A stretch of DNA of 64,000 nt, taken from contig JAADFL010000187.1 in the NCBI GenBank assembly GCA_013152945.1, positions 1 through 64,000 of the forward strand. Reading direction: 5' to 3'. This DNA comes from Deltaproteobacteria bacterium. Its GTDB lineage: Bacteria; Myxococcota_A; JAADFL01. Every line of letters begins with the position of its first letter. Positions within the stretch are counted from its first letter, which is position 1. The notes beneath the pieces are model-generated. The model ran no database searches and was not told where the DNA came from. It was given only the letters and a program-made list of their open reading frames with translations. Below, piece after piece: positions 28,549 through 37,937 of the stretch. Made by a program: the position numbers and the translations under genes.

Positions 28549-28705
28549 ATATAATGGGGACGTAATGGGGACGGATGCACACACATGGAAAGCACATGGA
28601 AGAGCACATGGGGGAGCACATGGGGACGGGGAGCACATGGGAGCACATGGGGACGGAGGGAGCGAGCACATGCATGGGACATGCATGGGGACGGAGGGAG
28701 CTAAT
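28549..28705. repeat. GGGGACGG/GCACATGG low-complexity repeat array
   Basis: Five copies of GGGGACG(G) at 28556, 28567, 28622, 28649 and 28687 alternate with GCACATGG and GCATGGGAC units. Short open frames on both strands here (for example minus 28481-28720) are repeat translations and not genes. The core matches the arrays at 1.07 and 43.80 kb. Confidence 0.75.
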
Positions 28706-29021: not shown

Positions 29022-30317
29022 ATGTCACAGGTAACAATCAAGATAAACGGACACGAAGTCAAAGCTGAAAAGGGAGAGCCCATCTTGGGGCCGATTCGTG
29101 CACAAGGTATCGACATTCCTACTTTATGCCACATGGATGGCGTGGAGCCTTACGGAGCATGTCGCCTCTGTATGGTCGAAGTAGGTAAAGGCGATCGTGC
29201 CAAGTTGGTTACGTCGTGTAATTTCCCGGCAAGGGAAGGGCTCGAGATCCAGACCGATACTGAAAGGGTGCATAGGGACAGGGCTATGCTGGCCGAACTG
29301 CTCTTGGCGCGCTCTCCAGGTGTAAAGAAGGTGCAGGAATTGGCAGTATCGCTGGGGGTGAAAAAGGCGCGATTCAAAACCATGGAACCGACCGAATGCC
29401 TGCTTTGCGGACTTTGTGTTCGAGTGTGTAATGAAATCGTGGGCGCCTCGGCCATCGGTTTCGAGGGCCGCGGAGTCGACCGCGTGGTAGGAACACCTTT
29501 TTTCCTCGATCCCGATGCCTGTATAGCCTGTGGTGCATGTACCGAAGTGTGTCCCACGGGTATCATGCAGATGGAGATAAAAACCAAGGAACGATGGAAA
29601 AAGGAACTTGTCGGCAACCAGAGGCTTTGCCGCTATGCCCGCATGGGGCTTGTCCCGTACAAGGTCTGTCCCAATGACTTTGACTGTGCTACCTGCGAGG
29701 TCGACCAGCGTCTTTGGGATGAGATGGGCATGCACCCGGTATTGGCTCTGGCCCCCGGCAAGAAGCGAAAACCCAGGCAAGTCGGAAATTTTGTCACAAT
29801 GCTTGATCGTTTCTATTCCAAGGGGCATGTCTGGGTCAAACCACTGGGGGAAAGGGTAATCGTGGGCCTTGATGATTTCGCCCAGAAGGTCATCGGAGAT
29901 ATCTCCTCCATTACAATAGGAGCAAAGCCCGGAGATGTAGTACACAAGGGGAAAGATAGCCTTAATGTGGCTTGTAACGGCCATAGCGCCGCCATGCTTT
30001 TCCCGATATCAGGCACAATAAAGAGCATCAACCCGGCCATGGATGACGAGCCTACGGTGATAAACGAAGATTGCTACCGGCGCGGATGGCTCTTTACTGT
30101 TGAGCCTACAGACCAGTACAGGGAAACCAAAGACTTGGTCGCTTCCGGTCAAGTGGAGCCATGGATGTTGGAGGAATCGGATTTTCTGTTCAAGACCTTG
30201 AGTGAGGTCGGCGGTGCTGCATTGTCTGATGGCGGTGAGCTGTTGCCCAACTTCTCCAGGGAACTTGCGGATGATGAATGGGATCGCATTGCAAAAAGAT
30301 TTTTCTCAAAGGTCTGA
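29022..30317 (+). CDS. HydA/NuoG-type ferredoxin protein fused to a GcvH-like domain (no H-cluster)
   Basis: 431 residues. Residues 1-80 are a [2Fe-2S] ferredoxin domain (Cys 36, 47, 50, 66) as at the N-terminus of HydA/HndD and NuoG. The next segment aligns with the His-Cys3 cluster domain, but its cysteines are missing (LLLARSPGVKKVQELA). Residues 126-136 and 167-177 are two C-x2-C-x2-C-x3-C clusters. C203, C216, C222 and C225 form a C-x12-C-x5-C-x2-C motif. Residues 265-362 match glycine-cleavage H protein (GHVWVKPLGERVIVGLDDFA, FPISGTIKSIN), yet the lipoyl-lysine position is Gly320. It takes the place of the catalytic hydrogenase subunit in an Hnd-like gene order and is probably the electron-output subunit (inference). 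Confidence 0.85.
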   Translation: MSQVTIKINGHEVKAEKGEPILGPIRAQGIDIPTLCHMDGVEPYGACRLCMVEVGKGDRAKLVTSCNFPAREGLEIQTDTERVHRDRAMLAELLLARSPGVKKVQELAVSLGVKKARFKTMEPTECLLCGLCVRVCNEIVGASAIGFEGRGVDRVVGTPFFLDPDACIACGACTEVCPTGIMQMEIKTKERWKKELVGNQRLCRYARMGLVPYKVCPNDFDCATCEVDQRLWDEMGMHPVLALAPGKKRKPRQVGNFVTMLDRFYSKGHVWVKPLGERVIVGLDDFAQKVIGDISSITIGAKPGDVVHKGKDSLNVACNGHSAAMLFPISGTIKSINPAMDDEPTVINEDCYRRGWLFTVEPTDQYRETKDLVASGQVEPWMLEESDFLFKTLSEVGGAALSDGGELLPNFSRELADDEWDRIAKRFFSKV

Positions 30318-30354
30318 AACAAGAATCCGAAGCCGATGGATGGGGAGGTGTGAC

Positions 30355-31293
30355 ATGTCCGGGAATATCAAGAACAAAAAGAAATTGGTAAAAGCCTCGT
30401 CGGGACAGTGTATCTGGGTTGATGCGGGAGTCATATCCTACAGACTTTGTACATTGAACTACGAGTGCGAACGGTGCTCGTTGCACCAGGCTCTGATAGA
30501 CAGCCCCGTATTGGTTCAGCCCGGCATGAGCCTGACCTTGGACCAGGCGGAGTTCGAAGAACGGCGCGCCGAGTTCGACAAATTTTTCGAAAAGCTTCCT
30601 GCAGAGGCCCGTAAGTGTCGGTACATGTTGACCGGTGATGTTTCATACAAGTTGTGTATCAACTCGTTTCGGTGTGCAAGTTGTTCTTTTCAGCAAATGA
30701 TGGAGGACTCGATTACAGCCGAAGTAACAATTCAGCCAAGTAAAACAGATGTTATATATGGGCTTCGTTTCAAAGGGGACCTGCACTACCACAGGGGGCA
30801 TGTCTGGGCCCGAGTCGAACGCGAGGGTGATGTTCGAATCGGGCTTGACGATTTCGGACAGCAATTACTGGGCCCGATCCGGGAAGTCGACTTGCCTGGA
30901 ATTGGTGATGCTGTGTACGAGGGTGTTTCAGCATGTAAACTTGGACACAAGCAGGGCGGCATACATGTACAGACGCCCATCTCCGGGCGAATCATTGCTG
31001 TAAACAAAATGGTATCAGAGCATCCGGAGCTTATTAACGATTCGCCTTACAACAAAGGATGGCTGTACATAGTCAAACCTCACGACCTGCCATCAGAACT
31101 CGTGAACCTGCTTTATGGAACAGAAGCCAGGCACTGGTTCGAACAGGAAATCAACAGGGTGGTCAAACGTTTATACAGGGATTCCGGGAAGAGAAAGGTT
31201 GTTTCGATAGAAAAAGGCGCTATCTGGAAGGAATGTGACTGCATCGAGATGGCAAACGAATTCTTACTGGCGGTGCTTGAAAAAGCGGCCTAG
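30355..31293 (+). CDS. GcvH-like protein with two four-cysteine motifs
   Basis: 312 residues from ATG 30355, preceded by GGGGAGGTG. The first 120 residues hold two copies of C-x12-C-x5-C-x2-C (Cys 19/32/38/41 and 88/101/107/110), the same motif as in the preceding protein. Residues 145-242 are an H-protein-like beta fold (GHVWARVEREGDVRIGLDDFG, TPISGRIIAVN). By counting from TPISG, the lipoyl position is Gln200, with Lys199 next to it, so lipoylation is doubtful. The four-Cys motifs could ligate an FeS cluster or zinc. It is not a normal glycine-cleavage protein: gcvT and gcvP are absent. Confidence 0.8.
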   Translation: MSGNIKNKKKLVKASSGQCIWVDAGVISYRLCTLNYECERCSLHQALIDSPVLVQPGMSLTLDQAEFEERRAEFDKFFEKLPAEARKCRYMLTGDVSYKLCINSFRCASCSFQQMMEDSITAEVTIQPSKTDVIYGLRFKGDLHYHRGHVWARVEREGDVRIGLDDFGQQLLGPIREVDLPGIGDAVYEGVSACKLGHKQGGIHVQTPISGRIIAVNKMVSEHPELINDSPYNKGWLYIVKPHDLPSELVNLLYGTEARHWFEQEINRVVKRLYRDSGKRKVVSIEKGAIWKECDCIEMANEFLLAVLEKAA

Positions 31294-31340: not shown

Positions 31341-31814
31341 ATGGAAGTACAGCCGAATGATGTTGACAATATTGTCGACCGCTGGAGAGGCGACAGGAGT
31401 TACCTGATCGAAATGCTCCAGGATGTACAGGAACAATTTCACTACATTCCAAAGGAAGTGGCGGAGAAATTGTCCAGTGATCTGGACGTGCCTTTGACTC
31501 ACATTTTTCATATTACGACCTTCTACAAGGGCTTTACCCTCGAGCCGCGCGGGAAGTATCCAATTTCCGTCTGCACCGGCACGGCATGCCATGTTAAGGG
31601 CGGAGCGCGCATCTTGGAAAATGTTATGCGCGAACTAAATGTGAGTCGCGAGGGCGAGGCAACCCCGGACGGCCTTTTTAGCGTGGAATCGGTTCGTTGC
31701 CTCGGGTGTTGTGGCCTCGCCCCCGTTGTAACCGTAGGTGATGATGTCTACGGCCGTACCTCGTCAACCAAGGTCAACCGGCTAATCAAGCGGATAAAGG
31801 GGAAAGAGCGATGA
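31341..31814 (+). CDS. NuoE/HndA-type [2Fe-2S] subunit
   Basis: 157 residues, the 24-kDa-type thioredoxin-like ferredoxin of complex I and of NAD-dependent bifurcating hydrogenases. Ligands are in VCTGTACHVKG (C-x4-C) and VRCLGCCGLAP (C-x3-C). An N-terminal helical bundle reads LIEMLQDVQEQFHYIPKEV. It would pass electrons between the NuoF-type flavin subunit and the FeS chain. AAGGAGG lies upstream. Length and motifs are normal for the family. Confidence 0.93.
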   Translation: MEVQPNDVDNIVDRWRGDRSYLIEMLQDVQEQFHYIPKEVAEKLSSDLDVPLTHIFHITTFYKGFTLEPRGKYPISVCTGTACHVKGGARILENVMRELNVSREGEATPDGLFSVESVRCLGCCGLAPVVTVGDDVYGRTSSTKVNRLIKRIKGKER

Positions 31815-31842: not shown

Positions 31843-32226
31843 ATGCCAAAACTGAAAATCGAAGACCTCGACAAGATCGTGGAGCAAAGCAAAAAGACCA
31901 TGTCTGTTAGGTATGGCGCAGGCAGGGTCAAGATTACTGTGCACATGGGTACTTGCGGGATTTCGGCCGGTGCACGGGACATACTGTCTGCAGTCATGCG
32001 TTGTGTGGAGGACTCCGGCGTCGATGACATCATTGTTACCACTTCCGGCTGTGCAGGCCTTTGTAGCCGCGAGCCGATGATGACTGTAGAGGTTGTTCAA
32101 CACCCCCCTGTGAAATATGTGGATTTGAACGAAAAAAAGGTCAAGGAGATTTTCGATGAGCATGTAATGAAAGGAAATATCGTCGAAGACTATGCTTTGG
32201 CCATAGGCGGAGAACAGATGCTATGA
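31843..32226 (+). CDS. HndB-like thioredoxin-fold [2Fe-2S] protein
   Basis: 127 residues with HMGTCGISAGAR and TSGCAGLCSREP, the (2Fe-2S) thioredoxin-like pattern of HndB in NADP-reducing hydrogenases. The first ligand pair is reduced to one Cys (GTCG, where NuoE has C-x4-C), as is common in HndB, so cluster binding is uncertain. It sits between the NuoE- and NuoF-type genes, the same order as hndABC, and overlaps the latter by ATGA. Confidence 0.85.
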   Translation: MPKLKIEDLDKIVEQSKKTMSVRYGAGRVKITVHMGTCGISAGARDILSAVMRCVEDSGVDDIIVTTSGCAGLCSREPMMTVEVVQHPPVKYVDLNEKKVKEIFDEHVMKGNIVEDYALAIGGEQML

Positions 32227-34094
32227 GTACAATACCAAAACAAGTTTTGGAAGAATCGCAGACTGCGGGCAGGGATTTGAGCAGGTTTCGAATGCAGCTC
32301 ATGCTGTGCTCTGGAACTGCTTGTGTCTCAAGTGGCTCCCATAAGATCAAAGATGCCTTGGAACGGGAGTTGGCCAAACAAAATCTTGACGACGAGGTGG
32401 CGGTTGTTATGACCGGATGCAATGGTTTTTGCGCCCAGGGACCGGTCATGGTAGTTCAGCCGGACGGAATCTTCTACCAACTTTTAAGCGATAAGGACAT
32501 ACCCCTTTTGGTCGAAGAGCATATGCTTAAAGGCCGGCCGGTCGAGAAGCTCATGTATAAACCATCAGCAACCAAAACCGCAGTGCCGAAGATGAGTGAG
32601 ATAGGTTTTTTCAAGAAGCAACGTCTTCTGGCACTTAGGAACCGGGGGCTGATCGACCCGGAAAAAATCGAGGAGTACATTGCTCGCGACGGGTACAAGG
32701 CCCTGGCCAAGGTACTCACAAAGATGAAACCGGAAGAGGTGGTCCAAGAGATGATTGCATCCGGCCTGCGTGGACGTGGAGGCGGTGGTTTTCCGACCGG
32801 TATCAAGTGGAAGACATGCCGTGATGCTCCGGAAAGCCCTAAGTATGTTGTATGCAATGCAGACGAGGGCGACCCCGGTGCATACATGGACAGGAGTATA
32901 GTGGAATCAGATCCCCACGTCGTGCTTGAGGGTATGGCCATAGCAGCCTATGCCGTCGGCGCCAAGAAAGGCTATGTGTACATTCGCCACGAGTATCCAC
33001 TCGCACTCAAGCGCCTGCAAAAGGCAATTGCCGATGCCAGGGAATATGGTCTGTTGGGAAAAAATATCCTGGACCAGGGCTTTGATTTCGATATCTCCAT
33101 TCACCTTGGAGCCGGCGCTTTTGTCTGTGGCGAATCGACGGCACTCATGGCATCGATGGAAGGGCGTGTGGGTGAACCCCGCGCCAAGTATATCCATACC
33201 GTCGAACATGGCTTATGGGATCGCCCCACAAACCTCAACAACGTGGAAACATATGCCAATGTGCCGCAAATCATGCTGCGGGGGTCAAAATGGTTTACCT
33301 CGATAGGTACCGGTGATGTCAGCAAGAGCCCTTGGGGCGGAAGCAAGGGAACCAAAGTCTTTTCCCTGGTCGGCAAGGTGAAAAACACGGGCCTGGTTGA
33401 AGTTCCCATGGGCACGACATTGAGGGAAATCATCTTCGACATTGGTGGTGGCATTTCAAACGGCAAGAAGTTCAAGGCAGTACAAACAGGTGGACCCTCG
33501 GGCGGGGTGATTCCGGAGAGTCTGCTGGACCTGCCTGTGGATTTCGACCAACTCACCAAAGTAGGCTCCATGATGGGTTCAGGCGGCATGATCGTGATGA
33601 ACGAAGATGACTGCATGGTGGATATTGCAAGATATTTTATTGACTTCTTGGTTGGCGAGTCATGCGGTAAATGTCTTCCGTGCCGTGAAGGCTTGCGGCA
33701 GATGAGTTCCATGCTCAATGACATCTGCAGTGGCAAGGCAGAGAAAGGGACCATCGATCTCCTGGAGAATCTTTGTTATACAGTGCGTGATACCGCGTTA
33801 TGCGCCCTGGGACGGGGTGCGGTCAATCCTGTCCTGACAACGATCAAATATTTCAGGGAGGAGTACGAGGCACACATAAACAAGAAGAAATGTCCGGCCG
33901 GTGTATGCAAGGCTCTCATTACCTATAAAATAGATGCCGGGAAGTGTAACGGCTGTACATTATGTGCAAGGGAATGCCCACAACAGGCCATTACAGGTGA
34001 AAAGCTGAAACCGCACAAGATTAATACTGATTTATGTATCAGATGCGGTGTCTGCCGGGATGTATGTAACCAGGATGCGGTTTATGTGAAATAA
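32223..34094 (+). CDS. NuoF/HndC-type NAD(P)- and FMN-binding subunit
   Basis: 623 residues. The N-terminal thioredoxin-like [2Fe-2S] module (about 20-110) carries LCSGTACVSSG and TGCNGFCAQGP. The 51-kDa core has the glycine-rich NADH/FMN site GLRGRGGGGFPTGIKW, CNADEGDPGAYMDRS and the [4Fe-4S] motif ESCGKCLPCREG. The C-terminal ferredoxin has two clusters (CNGCTLCARECPQQAI, CIRCGVCRDVCNQDAV). This is the full HydB/HndC layout used in flavin-based electron bifurcation, where NAD(P)H oxidation is tied to ferredoxin. It should be the NAD(P)H-reacting subunit of the complex coded here. Confidence 0.95.
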   Translation: MSTIPKQVLEESQTAGRDLSRFRMQLMLCSGTACVSSGSHKIKDALERELAKQNLDDEVAVVMTGCNGFCAQGPVMVVQPDGIFYQLLSDKDIPLLVEEHMLKGRPVEKLMYKPSATKTAVPKMSEIGFFKKQRLLALRNRGLIDPEKIEEYIARDGYKALAKVLTKMKPEEVVQEMIASGLRGRGGGGFPTGIKWKTCRDAPESPKYVVCNADEGDPGAYMDRSIVESDPHVVLEGMAIAAYAVGAKKGYVYIRHEYPLALKRLQKAIADAREYGLLGKNILDQGFDFDISIHLGAGAFVCGESTALMASMEGRVGEPRAKYIHTVEHGLWDRPTNLNNVETYANVPQIMLRGSKWFTSIGTGDVSKSPWGGSKGTKVFSLVGKVKNTGLVEVPMGTTLREIIFDIGGGISNGKKFKAVQTGGPSGGVIPESLLDLPVDFDQLTKVGSMMGSGGMIVMNEDDCMVDIARYFIDFLVGESCGKCLPCREGLRQMSSMLNDICSGKAEKGTIDLLENLCYTVRDTALCALGRGAVNPVLTTIKYFREEYEAHINKKKCPAGVCKALITYKIDAGKCNGCTLCARECPQQAITGEKLKPHKINTDLCIRCGVCRDVCNQDAVYVK

Positions 34095-34138: not shown

Positions 34139-34954
34139 ATGACGCTTAAAGAGCTTGTGAGCCTCCTTGAAGCCGATGTGCTTTTCGGCGAACGGCATTT
34201 GGATGACGAATTCAGATGTGTCAGTGCGTCGGATCTCATGAGTGACGTTCTGGCATTTGGTGTCCCGGGGGTTGTCATTTTGACGGGATTGCCGAATACC
34301 CAGTCCATATGTACTGCAGATATTGTAGAAGCAAAAGCCGTGGTCTATGTGCGCGGCAAGAGACCGGACCGGGAGGGAATCCTGTTGGCGCAGGAGAGAG
34401 ATATTCCCATACTGTCGACCAAGTTCTTCATGTACAAGGCATGCGGGTTGCTGTACAGCCGGAGTATCGAGGGAGTGGAAAAAACCAGCAATGAATATGC
34501 TGACAGCATGGTCAACAGCCGTAATTTTTCACGTGTCTTCAAGATCAAAGGCGGGAATTTTTCAAAGGCCGGTTCAGCGTCGATAGAGACCAAGGAGATC
34601 CTTCGCGAGTTAGGTGTCGATCCGGTCATTGTCCGTCGTGCGGCCATAGTTGCCTATGAAGCCGAGATGAATGTCGTCATGTACGCCGACAATGGGGAGA
34701 TGGTAATAACGGTAAATCCCGATGCCATCCGTATCCGCTTACAGGACCAAGGGCCGGGCATCAAGGACATTGATGCTGCGATGCAGGAAGGCTTTTCCAC
34801 TGCATCCGACGAGATACGGGAGATGGGATTCGGTGCCGGCATGGGCCTGCCGAATATCAAAAAGAACGCGGACGTGTTCGAGTTGACTACGACTGTCGGC
34901 AAGGGCACATGTTACAAAATCGTCATATACCTGGATTCCAGGGGGCGGACATGA
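34139..34954 (+). CDS. DRTGG-like domain fused to RsbW-type ATPase
   Basis: 271 residues. Residues 1-115 look like a DRTGG domain (CVSASDLMSDVLAF, VVYVRGKRPDREGI), a module seen next to [FeFe]-hydrogenase genes. Residues 140-265 are a GHKL ATPase of the anti-sigma or serine-kinase type (AYEAEMNVVMYADNG, DQGPGIKDID, GFGAGMGLPNIKKNAD). The same two domains occur as separate proteins later in the operon (36322 and 37398). A regulatory or assembly role, perhaps by phosphorylation, is inference. It overlaps the next gene by ATGA. Confidence 0.8.
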   Translation: MTLKELVSLLEADVLFGERHLDDEFRCVSASDLMSDVLAFGVPGVVILTGLPNTQSICTADIVEAKAVVYVRGKRPDREGILLAQERDIPILSTKFFMYKACGLLYSRSIEGVEKTSNEYADSMVNSRNFSRVFKIKGGNFSKAGSASIETKEILRELGVDPVIVRRAAIVAYEAEMNVVMYADNGEMVITVNPDAIRIRLQDQGPGIKDIDAAMQEGFSTASDEIREMGFGAGMGLPNIKKNADVFELTTTVGKGTCYKIVIYLDSRGRT

Positions 34955-36318
34955 GTAAATATTTCCATTCGGTAAGAGTTGATGAATCGAAATGCGATGG
35001 TCGCCGGAGGTGCATGAGGGTATGTCCTACCCAGGCGATCCGGGTAAGAAACAATAGGGCGGTAATCCTGGAAGAGAAATGCATTGATTGCGGAGAGTGT
35101 ATCACGGCCTGCCCAAATGAGGCCATCGTGGCATTGACCAATCCAATCGGTGAGCTGAAGCGATTCAATTACACGGTAGCGATACCTTCGCCGACACTCT
35201 ACGCGCAATTCGGCAGATCTATTCTACCGGATCAAATTTTGGCGGGTTTGAAGAAAATAGGGTTCGACGATGCAGTCGATTTGGCTATAATCTGTGGAGA
35301 TACCAGCCTGGCCACAGAATATTTTTTGGGTGATTACAGTGGTCCAAAGCCGCTGATTTTCAATTCCTGCCCTGCAGTCGTGAGCCTTATACAGGTCAGA
35401 TACCCACAACTCGTAGATCACATCATTCCTCTCAAGGAACCCAAGAGCCTTGCTGCAAAGGAAGTCAAGGAACGAAAATCAAAAGAACTTGGGCTCAAAC
35501 CCGAAGATATTGGGACATTTTACATCACACCATGCCCTGTCAAGATGCTTGCCATCCAGCAGCCTCCTTCCAAGGAAATGTGCCATCTGGATGGGGCAAT
35601 CTCTATTGCCGACATCTACGGACCACTGCTGTCGGCGCTTGAGGGCGAAGACAAGGACAGCTATCGCAGGAATCTCGAAAGCGTCTGTATCCTTGGAATC
35701 GGGTGGGCCGTTGCCGGCGGAATGCACCGTACCCAGAACATGAAGAATGTCGTCGATGTTTCAGGTATTTCGGAAATCATCACTACCTTTGATGATATCG
35801 AGCAGGGCAAGTTGCAGAACGTGGACCTGGTCGTGGCATATGCCTGTCCGCAGGGTTGCGTCGGCGGATCATTGACAGTGGAAAACCGTTATATTTCCTA
35901 TAACAAGATACTTCGTCTGCTTGAGACCCTCGAACAGGAAAACATAGAGGCATGTCGGGACAAGCGGGAAATTCTCGAACGTTATCAGCAAAAGTATTTC
36001 CACAGGCGGCAAAAATACGAACCGCGGCCCATGCAGGCGCTCGATAAAGATCTGGGCAAGGCCATAAGAAAACGCGAAGAAAAGCAGCGCTTATATGATT
36101 CCTTGTCCAAGGTGGACTGTGGAATATGCGGCGCCCCGACATGCCTTTGTTTCGCAGAGGATGTTGTCATGGGAAATGCGCAACCGTCTGACTGCATTTT
36201 CAATGTTCCCCGTAGATTCAAGGAGCTTACAGCCGAGCTGTCTGAACTCTTGGACGCCTTTGGCTCAATGGGCATGGATAAAATTGAAGGGCACAAACCG
36301 GGAAAAGTGGAGAAATAA
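34951..36318 (+). CDS. HydS-like protein: ferredoxin + [FeFe]-hydrogenase H-cluster domain + FeS domain
   Basis: 455 residues from ATG 34951 (ATGA overlap with the previous gene). Residues 10-60 are a two-cluster ferredoxin, but the first motif has Arg18 in place of its second Cys (C15, C21, C25 remain). The hydrogenase large-subunit domain keeps the four [4Fe-4S]-H ligands: Cys140 (NSCPAVV), Cys195 (ITPCPVKM), Cys299 and Cys303 (YACPQGCVGG). The Cys that relays protons in active enzymes is Ser139. A C-terminal FeS motif CGICGAPTCLCFAEDV follows; no PAS domain. This is the architecture of sensory/group C-D [FeFe] proteins, not of a high-turnover hydrogenase. Confidence 0.88.
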   Translation: MSKYFHSVRVDESKCDGRRRCMRVCPTQAIRVRNNRAVILEEKCIDCGECITACPNEAIVALTNPIGELKRFNYTVAIPSPTLYAQFGRSILPDQILAGLKKIGFDDAVDLAIICGDTSLATEYFLGDYSGPKPLIFNSCPAVVSLIQVRYPQLVDHIIPLKEPKSLAAKEVKERKSKELGLKPEDIGTFYITPCPVKMLAIQQPPSKEMCHLDGAISIADIYGPLLSALEGEDKDSYRRNLESVCILGIGWAVAGGMHRTQNMKNVVDVSGISEIITTFDDIEQGKLQNVDLVVAYACPQGCVGGSLTVENRYISYNKILRLLETLEQENIEACRDKREILERYQQKYFHRRQKYEPRPMQALDKDLGKAIRKREEKQRLYDSLSKVDCGICGAPTCLCFAEDVVMGNAQPSDCIFNVPRRFKELTAELSELLDAFGSMGMDKIEGHKPGKVEK

Positions 36319-36321
36319 ATC

Positions 36322-36660
36322 ATGACCTTGGCAGAGATTGTCGAAAGATTGGGGCTTTGTGTTTTGACGTCGAAAAAAATCCGGGATACCGATGTGACCG
36401 GAGGCTATACGTGTGATCTATTAAGTGATGTGATTGCCAACAGCAAGGTGGGGAATCTCTGGATCACCGTGCAAATACACGAAAATGTTTTGGCAGTAGC
36501 CAAGCTCAAGGACCTCGCGGGAATTGTATTGGTAAATGGCCGCAGGCCCGATGAAAGCGTGACCAGGAAGGCCGACGAGGAGAACGTTGCGATCTTGGGC
36601 ACTGATGAATCTGCCTTCGAGATCTCCGGGCGGCTTTACCGGTTGATCAATAAAATGTAG
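36322..36660 (+). CDS. Stand-alone DRTGG-domain protein
   Basis: 112 residues, a single DRTGG domain with the eponymous region as TDVTGGYTCDLLSDVIA and the later GIVLVNGRRPDESV. In other genomes such small proteins flank [FeFe]-hydrogenase and HydS genes; their biochemical role is not known. Three bases separate it from the HydS-like gene, and the PHP gene follows after 6 bp. Confidence 0.85.
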   Translation: MTLAEIVERLGLCVLTSKKIRDTDVTGGYTCDLLSDVIANSKVGNLWITVQIHENVLAVAKLKDLAGIVLVNGRRPDESVTRKADEENVAILGTDESAFEISGRLYRLINKM

Positions 36661-36666
36661 TTCACG

Positions 36667-37398
36667 ATGCTGAGAACTTTCAAGGCCGACTTGCACATTC
36701 ATACCTGTCTTTCTCCTTGTGCCGAAGTGAAGATGTCACCGGCCGGAATCATCGATCGCGCAAAGGCTGTTGACCTCGACATACTGGGCATCTGTGATCA
36801 CAACTCTGCGGAGAATACTCCGGCTGCCATGGAGGCGGCACAAAGACATGGTTTATATGTCCTTCCGGGAATGGAGATAACCTCTATGGAGGAGGTTCAT
36901 CTACTGGCCTTGTTCGATGCGCTGGAGCCTGTACACGTCCTTCAGGAGATCGTGTATGAACATCTGCCGGGCAAGAATGACGAGAAAGTCTTTGGCATGC
37001 AGGTGGTAGCCGGTGCCGACGACGAGGTCCTTGGTTTCAACCAGAAGCTCTTGATTGGAGCAACCACGCTTCAGTTGACGGAAATTGTAGAGGCAGTTCA
37101 CTCACTGGGCGGTATCGCCGTTGCAGCACATATCGATCGACAGAGTTTCGGTATTATCGGTCAGCTTGGTTTCATTCCCAAGGGCCTTGCCCTTGACGCT
37201 CTGGAGATCTCTGCACGAATTTCGAAGGAGAGAGCCATTGACAAATATGGTTCCGGCCTGCCTTACGTCCAGTCATCCGATGCACACAGGCAGGAAGAAA
37301 TCGGCCGGTGTCATACCATGTTTTCAATCGGGGATGTCAATATCCAGGAAATCCAAAAGGCCCTCAAGGGAATTGATGGCAGGAGAATCATGCGCTGA
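36667..37398 (+). CDS. PHP-domain phosphoesterase-like protein
   Basis: 243 residues with the PHP metal-site motifs ADLHIHTCLSPC, ICDHNSAEN, LPGMEITSMEEVHLL, VAAHID and SSDAHRQEE, so all metal-ligand blocks are present. PHP proteins hydrolyse phosphoesters, including nucleotides. Its partner domains in this operon (DRTGG, GHKL ATPase) suggest a small-molecule or phosphoprotein signalling module. The stop overlaps the next start by one base. Confidence 0.88.
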   Translation: MLRTFKADLHIHTCLSPCAEVKMSPAGIIDRAKAVDLDILGICDHNSAENTPAAMEAAQRHGLYVLPGMEITSMEEVHLLALFDALEPVHVLQEIVYEHLPGKNDEKVFGMQVVAGADDEVLGFNQKLLIGATTLQLTEIVEAVHSLGGIAVAAHIDRQSFGIIGQLGFIPKGLALDALEISARISKERAIDKYGSGLPYVQSSDAHRQEEIGRCHTMFSIGDVNIQEIQKALKGIDGRRIMR

Positions 37399-37937
37399 TG
37401 GAAGACCTGTCGCTACACTTGTTGGATATAATGGAAAATTCCATCGAGGCGGACGCACACAGAATAGATATCACCATTGACGAGGATCTGAATAACAACC
37501 TGCTTACGCTGGAAATCAGTGACGATGGAAAAGGCATGGATACGCAGATGCTGAAGATGGCTGCTGATCCATTTTTCACCACCCGAAAGACGAGGCGTTT
37601 CGGCCTGGGATTGTCCATGATTTCCGAGTCTGCAAGGGCAACCGGGGGTGAATTGACGCTTGAGTCAAAACCCGGAAAAGGCACTTGTGTACGGGCGGTC
37701 TTTCATAGGAACCATATCGACATGAAACCGTTGGGAGATATACCAAAGACGCTGTTGACCGTGATTTTTGGACATCCTGAAATAGATTTGAGCTATCATC
37801 ATGTTGTTGGCATGAAGGAATTTTCTTTTACTACCATGGATTATAGAGAGGCGCCTATCAACTCTCCAAATGTGTTGCGACGACTGGCAGAAATCATGCG
37901 CAAAGGTATTGACGGCTTGAAAATACGCGGGAGCTGA
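37398..37937 (+). CDS. GHKL ATPase (histidine-kinase-type) protein
   Basis: 179 residues. HATPase motifs are N box MENSIEADA, G1 SDDGKGMD, F box DPFFTTRK and G2 RRFGLGLSM. It has no H box or receiver, so it is not a full kinase. A C-terminal 60-residue tail (FGHPEIDLSYHHVVGMKEFS) is typical of the version linked to hydrogenase operons. Last gene of the operon; I see no clear terminator after it. Confidence 0.85.
   Translation: MEDLSLHLLDIMENSIEADAHRIDITIDEDLNNNLLTLEISDDGKGMDTQMLKMAADPFFTTRKTRRFGLGLSMISESARATGGELTLESKPGKGTCVRAVFHRNHIDMKPLGDIPKTLLTVIFGHPEIDLSYHHVVGMKEFSFTTMDYREAPINSPNVLRRLAEIMRKGIDGLKIRGS

What the first reader, a model, noticed from the sequence alone, without database searches (positions are those of the whole stretch)
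29814..31080. Two GcvH-like domains without a lysine at the lipoyl-attachment position
Counting back eight residues from the conserved Pro of PISG gives Gly320 in the first protein and Gln200 in the second. Genuine H proteins have Lys there. The domains otherwise keep the fold signature (GHVW, GLDDF). They are unlikely to carry lipoate and may act as structural or docking modules.
Basis: partly seen in the sequence, partly recalled or inferred. Interest (0 to 1): 0.6.

Follow-up and report, generated by a model that had tools for sequence, protein, structure and literature searches.

The report
Lysine-less GcvH-like domains on bifurcation subunits
Two proteins of an electron-bifurcating (Bfu/HydABC-type) operon carry a domain folded like the lipoate-carrier protein GcvH but without the lysine that holds lipoate, and they belong to a distinct lysine-poor GcvH-like family found beside membrane redox complexes, where it most likely serves as a structural or docking part.

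Summary
Both proteins contain a true GcvH fold (Pfam GCV_H 1.9e-19 and 8.1e-23; AlphaFold/Foldseek TM 0.82-0.91 to GcvH structures). The residue eight before the conserved Pro is Gly320 in p1 and Gln200 in p2, at the tip of the lipoyl hairpin. Lys199 sits one residue off and is not conserved: an orthologous locus in another Myxococcota MAG has Gly again in p1, and Gly-His in p2 where the window has Lys199-Gln200. The genome can lipoylate (LipA, LplA/LipB-type enzyme) and has a separate genuine GcvH with Lys.

The two genes head a hyd-type operon (BfuC, extra 2Fe-2S protein, BfuB, regulators). HydA's H-cluster domain is replaced by a Cys4 motif (C-x12-C-x5-C-x2-C), a K-less GcvH-like domain and a conserved tail. 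The genome has no catalytic [FeFe] hydrogenase and no HydF. In a tree, 29 such domains separate from 22 genuine GcvHs on one branch (98/99). The lipoyl position is Lys in 22/22 genuine and 3/29 family members. Family genes lie beside NrfD/HybA redox genes in 12/16 loci, genuine gcvH in 0/21.

Best reading: a non-lipoylated docking/scaffold module of a non-hydrogenase Bfu complex. The third substrate is unknown.

The parts
29022..30317 (+). p1, 431 aa: BfuA/HoxU-like N-terminus ([2Fe-2S] C36/C47/C50/C66; two 4-Cys sets C126-C136 and C167-C177), Cys4 motif, K-less GcvH-like domain, conserved C-terminal tail
29628..29696 (+). Cys4 motif of p1, residues 203-225, C-x12-C-x5-C-x2-C (CRYARMGLVPYKVCPNDFDCATC); no Pfam match
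   Evidence: all four Cys conserved in L063
29811..30158 (+). GcvH-like domain of p1, residues 264-379
   Evidence: 1.9e-19; TMt up to 0.91, rmsd 1.4 A to H-protein structures
29979..29981 (+). Codon of Gly320, lipoyl-lysine position of p1 (hairpin tip N319-G320)
30162..30314 (+). C-terminal tail of p1 (residues 381-431, ...SDGGELLPNFSRELADDEW...), shared with membrane-anchored family members
30355..31293 (+). p2, 312 aa: two Cys4 motifs plus K-less GcvH-like domain; conserved C194, C294, C296
30409..30477 (+). First Cys4 motif of p2, residues 19-41
30616..30684 (+). Second Cys4 motif of p2, residues 88-110
30781..31137 (+). GcvH-like domain of p2, residues 143-261
   Evidence: 8.1e-23
30949..30954 (+). 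Codons of Lys199 and Gln200 of p2 (hairpin tip; Gln200 is the lipoyl position)
31341..31814 (+). BfuC/HydC/NuoE-type [2Fe-2S] thioredoxin-like subunit
   Evidence: PF01257 2e-46
31843..32226 (+). Additional thioredoxin-like [2Fe-2S] protein; homolog (59%) in the hyd-type operon of G137
32223..34094 (+). BfuB/HydB (NuoF core, SLBB, N-terminal 2Fe-2S domain, C-terminal 2x[4Fe-4S])
   Evidence: (A. woodii HydB 8e-240)
34139..37937 (+). Regulatory genes of hyd-type operons: DRTGG/HATPase (34139), HydS-like Fe_hyd_lg_C (34909), DRTGG (36322), PHP (36667), HATPase (37398)
   Evidence: same set in L115/G137

Best explanation
p1 and p2 are accessory-type subunits of a non-hydrogenase BfuABC (HydABC-like, flavin-based electron-bifurcating) complex. 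p1 is a short BfuA that brings electrons to or from the BfuBC core through its [2Fe-2S] and two [4Fe-4S] clusters. In place of a catalytic domain it carries a Cys4 site, a GcvH-like domain that cannot be lipoylated at the usual site, and a conserved tail. p2 carries two more Cys4 sites on a second such domain. The GcvH-like domains most likely act as rigid scaffold or docking pieces that hold p1, p2 and an unidentified third-substrate partner together, while the Cys4 sites bind metal (structural Zn or Fe-S). Shown: the fold, the missing Lys, its absence in the orthologous locus, the operon, the absence of a catalytic [FeFe]-hydrogenase domain, and membership in a K-poor family tied to NrfD/HybA redox gene clusters. 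Inferred: complex formation, docking, metal binding and bifurcation.
For: GcvH fold. Site Gly320/Gln200 and hairpin tip. Orthologous locus L063 keeps p1-p2-BfuC-2Fe2S-BfuB in order (68/57/74/55/81% identity), same p1 length, omega below about 0.1, no Lys in either protein. Bfu framework. p1 lacks the A3-type NADH-G 4Fe-4S domain that HydA of G175 has, as in Type 2 BfuA. No catalytic [FeFe] domain and no HydF in the genome; L063's genome has no Fe_hyd_lg_C at all. Family separates from genuine GcvH 98/99 and is Lys at the site in 3/29 against 22/22. Family beside NrfD/HybA in 12/16 loci, genuine gcvH 0/21. Between window and L063 the GcvH part is less conserved (52-56%) than the Cys4 regions (64-76%) and the p1 tail (69%), though not than the p2 tail. 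Genuine GcvH with Lys sits elsewhere beside gcvPA/PB.
Against: No partner protein or third substrate is identified. Docking is inferred from context, not measured. The AlphaFold models are confident only over the GcvH domain of each protein (mean pLDDT 52-53 overall). Family members fused to a receiver domain or next to histidine kinases would also fit a regulatory role. Three family members do have Lys at the site, so lipoylation is not excluded family-wide. Only one other locus with this fused arrangement was found, by a scan that used two short peptide patterns.
Confidence: 0.52

Rival explanations
1. The GcvH-like domains are signalling or redox-sensing modules: they report the state of the complex (Cys4 site as sensor) to the kinase-like and HydS-like regulators downstream, rather than holding a complex together.
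For: Family members are fused to a response-regulator receiver domain (L039) and often lie beside a HAMP histidine kinase, sigma-54 response regulator and M54 peptidase. The window operon ends with HATPase, DRTGG and HydS-like genes.
Against: p1 is fused in frame to the BfuA electron-transfer part and shares an operon with BfuB and BfuC. In most family loci the direct neighbours are NrfD and HybA. L063's genome has no HydS-like protein yet keeps p1 and p2.
Confidence: 0.2
2. The Cys4 sites are redox-active Fe-S clusters, so p1 and p2 are an added electron relay from BfuA to an unknown partner, and the GcvH-like fold only spaces the clusters.
For: Three copies of the same motif (one in p1, two in p2), all Cys conserved in L063 and found again in other family proteins. 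These regions are better conserved than the GcvH part. p1 places one directly after the ferredoxin-like domain.
Against: No Pfam Fe-S family matches the motif; C-x2-C pairs of this kind also bind Zn. AlphaFold confidence there is below 50.
Confidence: 0.2
3. The domains are lipoylated, or otherwise acylated, at another lysine near the tip, such as Lys199 of p2.
For: The genome encodes LipA and an LplA/LipB-type ligase. Lys199 is at the hairpin tip. L063 p1 has a Lys two residues after the site.
Against: Lys199 is one residue off and is Gly in L063. A lipoyl domain with its Lys moved by one residue (D41K/K42A) was not lipoylated (PMC6270654). p1 of the window has no Lys near the tip.
Confidence: 0.04
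4. They are decaying GcvH copies with no present function.
For: Lipoyl lysine lost.
Against: Intact ORFs, same p1 length and 57-68% identity in another species, strong purifying selection, operon synteny, and an old separate family.
Confidence: 0.02

Closest known systems
GcvH, H protein of the glycine cleavage system (PF01597, TIGR00527)
   Same: Fold, hairpin, PISG-like loop, GW motif; Pfam above cut-off
   Different: No Lys at the lipoyl position, below the NCBIfam equivalog cut-off, no gcvP/gcvT nearby, extra Cys4 and tail, separate clade; the genome has a genuine GcvH elsewhere
LbpA of the sHdr sulfur-oxidation system (PMC6067878)
   Same: GcvH-like protein working outside glycine cleavage, in a redox system
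   Different: LbpA has a strictly conserved Lys and carries lipoate; p1/p2 do not have the Lys and lie in a Bfu operon, not an sHdr cluster
BfuABC family, e.g. HydABC and NiFe-HydABCSL (PMC9304861)
   Same: BfuB, BfuC and the N-terminal part of BfuA with the A1, A2 and A4 type clusters; hyd-type regulators
   Different: BfuA carries a Cys4/GcvH-like extension instead of a catalytic domain, plus the extra GcvH-like subunit p2; GcvH is not mentioned in the main text of that paper
Membrane-anchored K-poor GcvH-like proteins beside NrfD/HybA or Qrc-like clusters in Myxococcota and Planctomycetota (found here: L035, L036, L037, L042, L044, L064, L154)
   Same: Same side of the tree relative to GcvH, variable lipoyl position, shared tail with p1, some with the same Cys4 motif
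   Different: Several carry an N-terminal hydrophobic segment or a receiver domain instead of a BfuA part

Membership tests
GcvH (glycine cleavage H protein) | GcvH fold | tested here: met
GcvH (glycine cleavage H protein) | Lipoyl lysine | tested here: not met
   Gly320 and Gln200
GcvH (glycine cleavage H protein) | NCBIfam GcvH score cut-off (TIGR00527 115.85; NF002270 117) | tested here: not met
   TIGR00527: p1 65.0 bits, p2 79.1; NF002270: 71.5 and 89.1; own genuine GcvH 139.8 and 159.6
GcvH (glycine cleavage H protein) | Gene context with gcvP/gcvT | tested here: not met
   Bfu operon in the window; genuine gcvH with gcvPA/PB at C158
LbpA (sHdr lipoate-binding protein) | Strictly conserved lipoyl Lys | tested here: not met
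LbpA (sHdr lipoate-binding protein) | Encoded in or near an sHdr-like cluster | tested here: not met
   neighbours annotated
GcvH-L (sirtuin/macrodomain-linked) | Operon with SirTM, macrodomain and lipoate ligase | tested here: not met
   none among the ten operon genes
NCBIfam not_gcvH (TIGR03077) and GcvH_rel_desulf (NF045810) | Curated cut-off (144 and 150 bits) | tested here: not met
   at most 60.6 and 44.5 bits
BfuABC (HydABC-type electron-bifurcating enzymes) | BfuB with FMN/NAD site and B1-B5 cluster motifs | tested here: met
   domains, Cys positions, best hits HydB/BfuB structures; clusters themselves not measured
BfuABC (HydABC-type electron-bifurcating enzymes) | BfuC and BfuA (A1, A2, A4 clusters) encoded with BfuB | tested here: met
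BfuABC (HydABC-type electron-bifurcating enzymes) | Third-substrate catalytic domain or subunit | tested here: inconclusive
   no known catalytic domain in p1, p2 or neighbours
BfuABC (HydABC-type electron-bifurcating enzymes) | Electron bifurcation activity | not testable with these tools
   needs purified enzyme
[FeFe]-hydrogenase HydABC | H-cluster domain in HydA and HydF maturase in the genome | tested here: not met
   only the HydS-like protein carries Fe_hyd_lg_C; no HydF above cut-off; genome 94% complete

The most novel reading that the evidence does not exclude
Cys4 motif plus pseudo-lipoyl GcvH-like domain is a so far undescribed redox-complex module. It faces the cytosol on NrfD-type membrane complexes and in this lineage has been fused to BfuA, so that a bifurcating core couples NADH and ferredoxin to a new third partner through non-lipoylated GcvH domains.
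Probability: 0.3. Interest if true: 0.72.

Novelty: new variant of a known kind. Interest (0 to 1): 0.52.

Why it matters
Proteins annotated 'glycine cleavage system protein H' are readily taken as evidence of lipoate-dependent C1 metabolism. Here a whole clade under that Pfam name has lost the lipoyl lysine in most members and sits in electron-transfer gene clusters. It would add a new kind of BfuA to the bifurcating-enzyme family and give a concrete candidate for one of the Bfu complexes whose third substrate is unknown.

Tried and rejected
Lys199 as lipoyl lysine: rejected by MAFFT, hhalign and model and by the ortholog. Lack of lipoylation machinery as the cause: rejected; LipA and LplA/LipB-type genes are present. 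The PF03099 hit at C205 is BirA-like with BPL_C. A Cys at the tip as replacement functional group: p1 C318 is not conserved in L063; p2 C194 is, but it lies away from the tip. The C65 GCV_H hit looks like a short biotinyl/lipoyl-type carrier (read from its sequence) and was not pursued. Full-length AlphaFold confidence was too low to place the Cys4 sulfurs. The greedy ORF pick mis-assigned genes in GC-rich contigs and was replaced by codon-position scoring and HMM searches. Literature searches for GcvH-like proteins in Bfu or NrfD clusters found no description; the library is open-access only.

Full report
WHAT WAS CLAIMED. The refuter it named was an alignment that puts Lys199 at the lipoyl site.

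OBSERVATION. The two ORFs are p1, 29022-30317 (431 aa), and p2, 30355-31293 (312 aa). Pfam GCV_H matches p1 264-379 at 1.9e-19 and p2 143-261 at 8.1e-23, both above the gathering score. The residue eight before the Pro of PISG is Gly320 and Gln200. MAFFT with genuine GcvHs, HMMER against E. coli GcvH structures (p2) and hhalign of the family against genuine GcvHs (E 3.2e-34, no gap between the site and the Pro) all agree. AlphaFold2 models are poor overall (mean pLDDT 52 and 53) but good over most of the GcvH part. There the two strands of the lipoyl hairpin are 312-318/321-326 in p1 and 192-198/201-206 in p2, so the tips are N319-G320 and K199-Q200. Foldseek finds GcvH structures first, with TM up to 0.91 (1.4 A) for p1 and about 0.82-0.85 for p2.

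IS IT LIPOYLATED? Very likely not at the usual site. Lys199 is at the tip but one residue early. In a 2-oxoacid dehydrogenase lipoyl domain, the same one-residue shift (D41K/K42A) gave no lipoylation (Wallis and Perham 1994, as summarised in PMC6270654). The orthologous locus L063 (JALVPF010000360.1, a Myxococcales MAG) has Gly again in p1, and Gly-His in p2 where the window has Lys199-Gln200. The genome is able to lipoylate: it has LipA, an LplA/LipB-type enzyme and a separate GcvH with Lys beside gcvPA and gcvPB. The PF03099 hit at C205 is a biotin ligase.

OPERON. p1 starts a ten-gene run on one strand. It continues with BfuC/HydC (31341), an extra [2Fe-2S] thioredoxin-like protein (31843), BfuB/HydB (32223), DRTGG/HATPase (34139), a HydS-like Fe_hyd_lg_C protein (34909), DRTGG, PHP and HATPase genes. 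BfuB is closest in the PDB to A. woodii HydB and has the N-terminal 2Fe-2S domain, the NADH_4Fe-4S domain and two C-terminal [4Fe-4S] motifs. The same regulators lie next to BfuC, the 2Fe-2S protein and BfuB in another Myxococcota genome (L115, G137). p1's first 190 residues are a short BfuA/HoxU with one [2Fe-2S] and two [4Fe-4S] motifs and without the NADH-G 4Fe-4S domain. This matches the Type 2 BfuA definition of Feng et al. 2022 (PMC9304861). The genome has no catalytic [FeFe]-hydrogenase domain and no HydF above cut-off. L063's genome has no Fe_hyd_lg_C domain at all. So this is a Bfu operon without a hydrogenase.

CYS4 MOTIFS. p1 has one copy of C-x12-C-x5-C-x2-C (203-225) and p2 has two (19-41, 88-110). 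All their cysteines are conserved in L063, and similar motifs occur in other family proteins. Pfam has no match above cut-off for these stretches. Between the window and L063 the GcvH-like part is less conserved (62/120 in p1, 69/124 in p2) than the Cys4 regions (43/67, 41/57, 39/51), the BfuA part (152/193) or the p1 tail (35/51); only the p2 tail is lower (18/49). dN/dS is below about 0.1 with dS saturated. This suggests the GcvH fold is a scaffold and that more of the constraint lies on the Cys4 sites and the p1 tail.

FAMILY. Searching 237 genomes of the phylum and following the hits gave 29 family domains, including the window and L063 ones, and 22 genuine GcvHs. They separate on one branch with 98/99 support. 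The lipoyl position is Lys in 22/22 genuine, but G 11, D 3, A 3, K 3 and others in the family. Of 16 family loci other than the window and L063, 12 have NrfD and/or a HybA-type ferredoxin gene close by; of 21 genuine gcvH loci none do, and most lie beside gcvPA (Fisher p about 1e-6, which ignores relatedness and contig length). Pfam confirms NrfD, Fer4_11, HAMP kinase, sigma-54 regulator and M54 peptidase neighbours, and in L044 a Qrc-like set of cytochrome, molybdopterin-type protein, ferredoxin and NrfD. The window's p1 shares its C-terminal tail with the membrane-anchored members. In G175 such a cluster lies directly beside a complete [FeFe] HydABC. The family is therefore tied to redox complexes in general, and in the window and L063 it has become part of a Bfu operon.

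MECHANISM. Shown: fold, missing Lys, ortholog, operon, hydrogenase-free genome, separate clade and redox context. Inferred: p1 and p2 join the BfuBC core, the GcvH-like domains act as rigid docking pieces, the Cys4 sites bind metal, and an unknown partner supplies the third substrate. A signalling role is the main rival, because some family members are fused to receiver domains (L039) or lie beside kinases.

LIMITS. Only one locus besides the window has the fused arrangement, found with a scan that used two short peptide patterns. The phylum sample is 237 genomes and Planctomycetota is represented by one contig. Three family members have Lys at the site, so lipoylation elsewhere in the family is open. 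The genome is about 94% complete. Papers held are open-access only, so absence of a description is not proof.

Noticed in passing
window 34909-36318 with 34139-37937: HydS-like sensory [FeFe]-hydrogenase-type protein and its usual regulator genes persist in a genome with no catalytic [FeFe] hydrogenase and no HydF; motifs read NSCP, TPCPVK and ACPQGC, with the first Cys of the usual TSCCP replaced by Ser (comparison from memory).
   Followed up: partly
L035 5315-13886, L036 6160-19308, L037, L064 9294-15901, L154, L160: Recurrent cluster of K-poor GcvH-like protein, TAT-type HybA ferredoxin, NrfD, HAMP histidine kinase, sigma-54 regulator and M54 archaemetzincin-like peptidase in Myxococcota and Planctomycetota.
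   Followed up: partly
L044 8995-14629, L041, L040: GcvH-like protein with Cys4 motif at the end of a Qrc-like set (multihaem cytochrome, molybdopterin-type protein, ferredoxin, NrfD).
   Followed up: partly
L039 907-2163: Response-regulator receiver domain fused to a K-less GcvH-like domain, with a second such gene just upstream.
   Followed up: no
L120 7563-14471 (own genome, C212): A second Bfu locus: BfuC, BfuB and a short 216 aa BfuA next to an HdrA-like protein and an FlpD/MvhD-type protein.
   Followed up: partly
L036 6160, L154 7505, L155 1969: Three family members have Lys at the lipoyl position but in a GK context, without the ES-x-K motif of genuine GcvH.
   Followed up: no
window 28582-28656: Short imperfect tandem repeat (units around CACATGGGGACGG) between the ClpC-like gene and the Bfu operon.
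   Followed up: no
L121 6186-13770 (G175): A complete [FeFe] HydABC lies back to back with a HybA/NrfD/GcvH-like cluster.
   Followed up: partly
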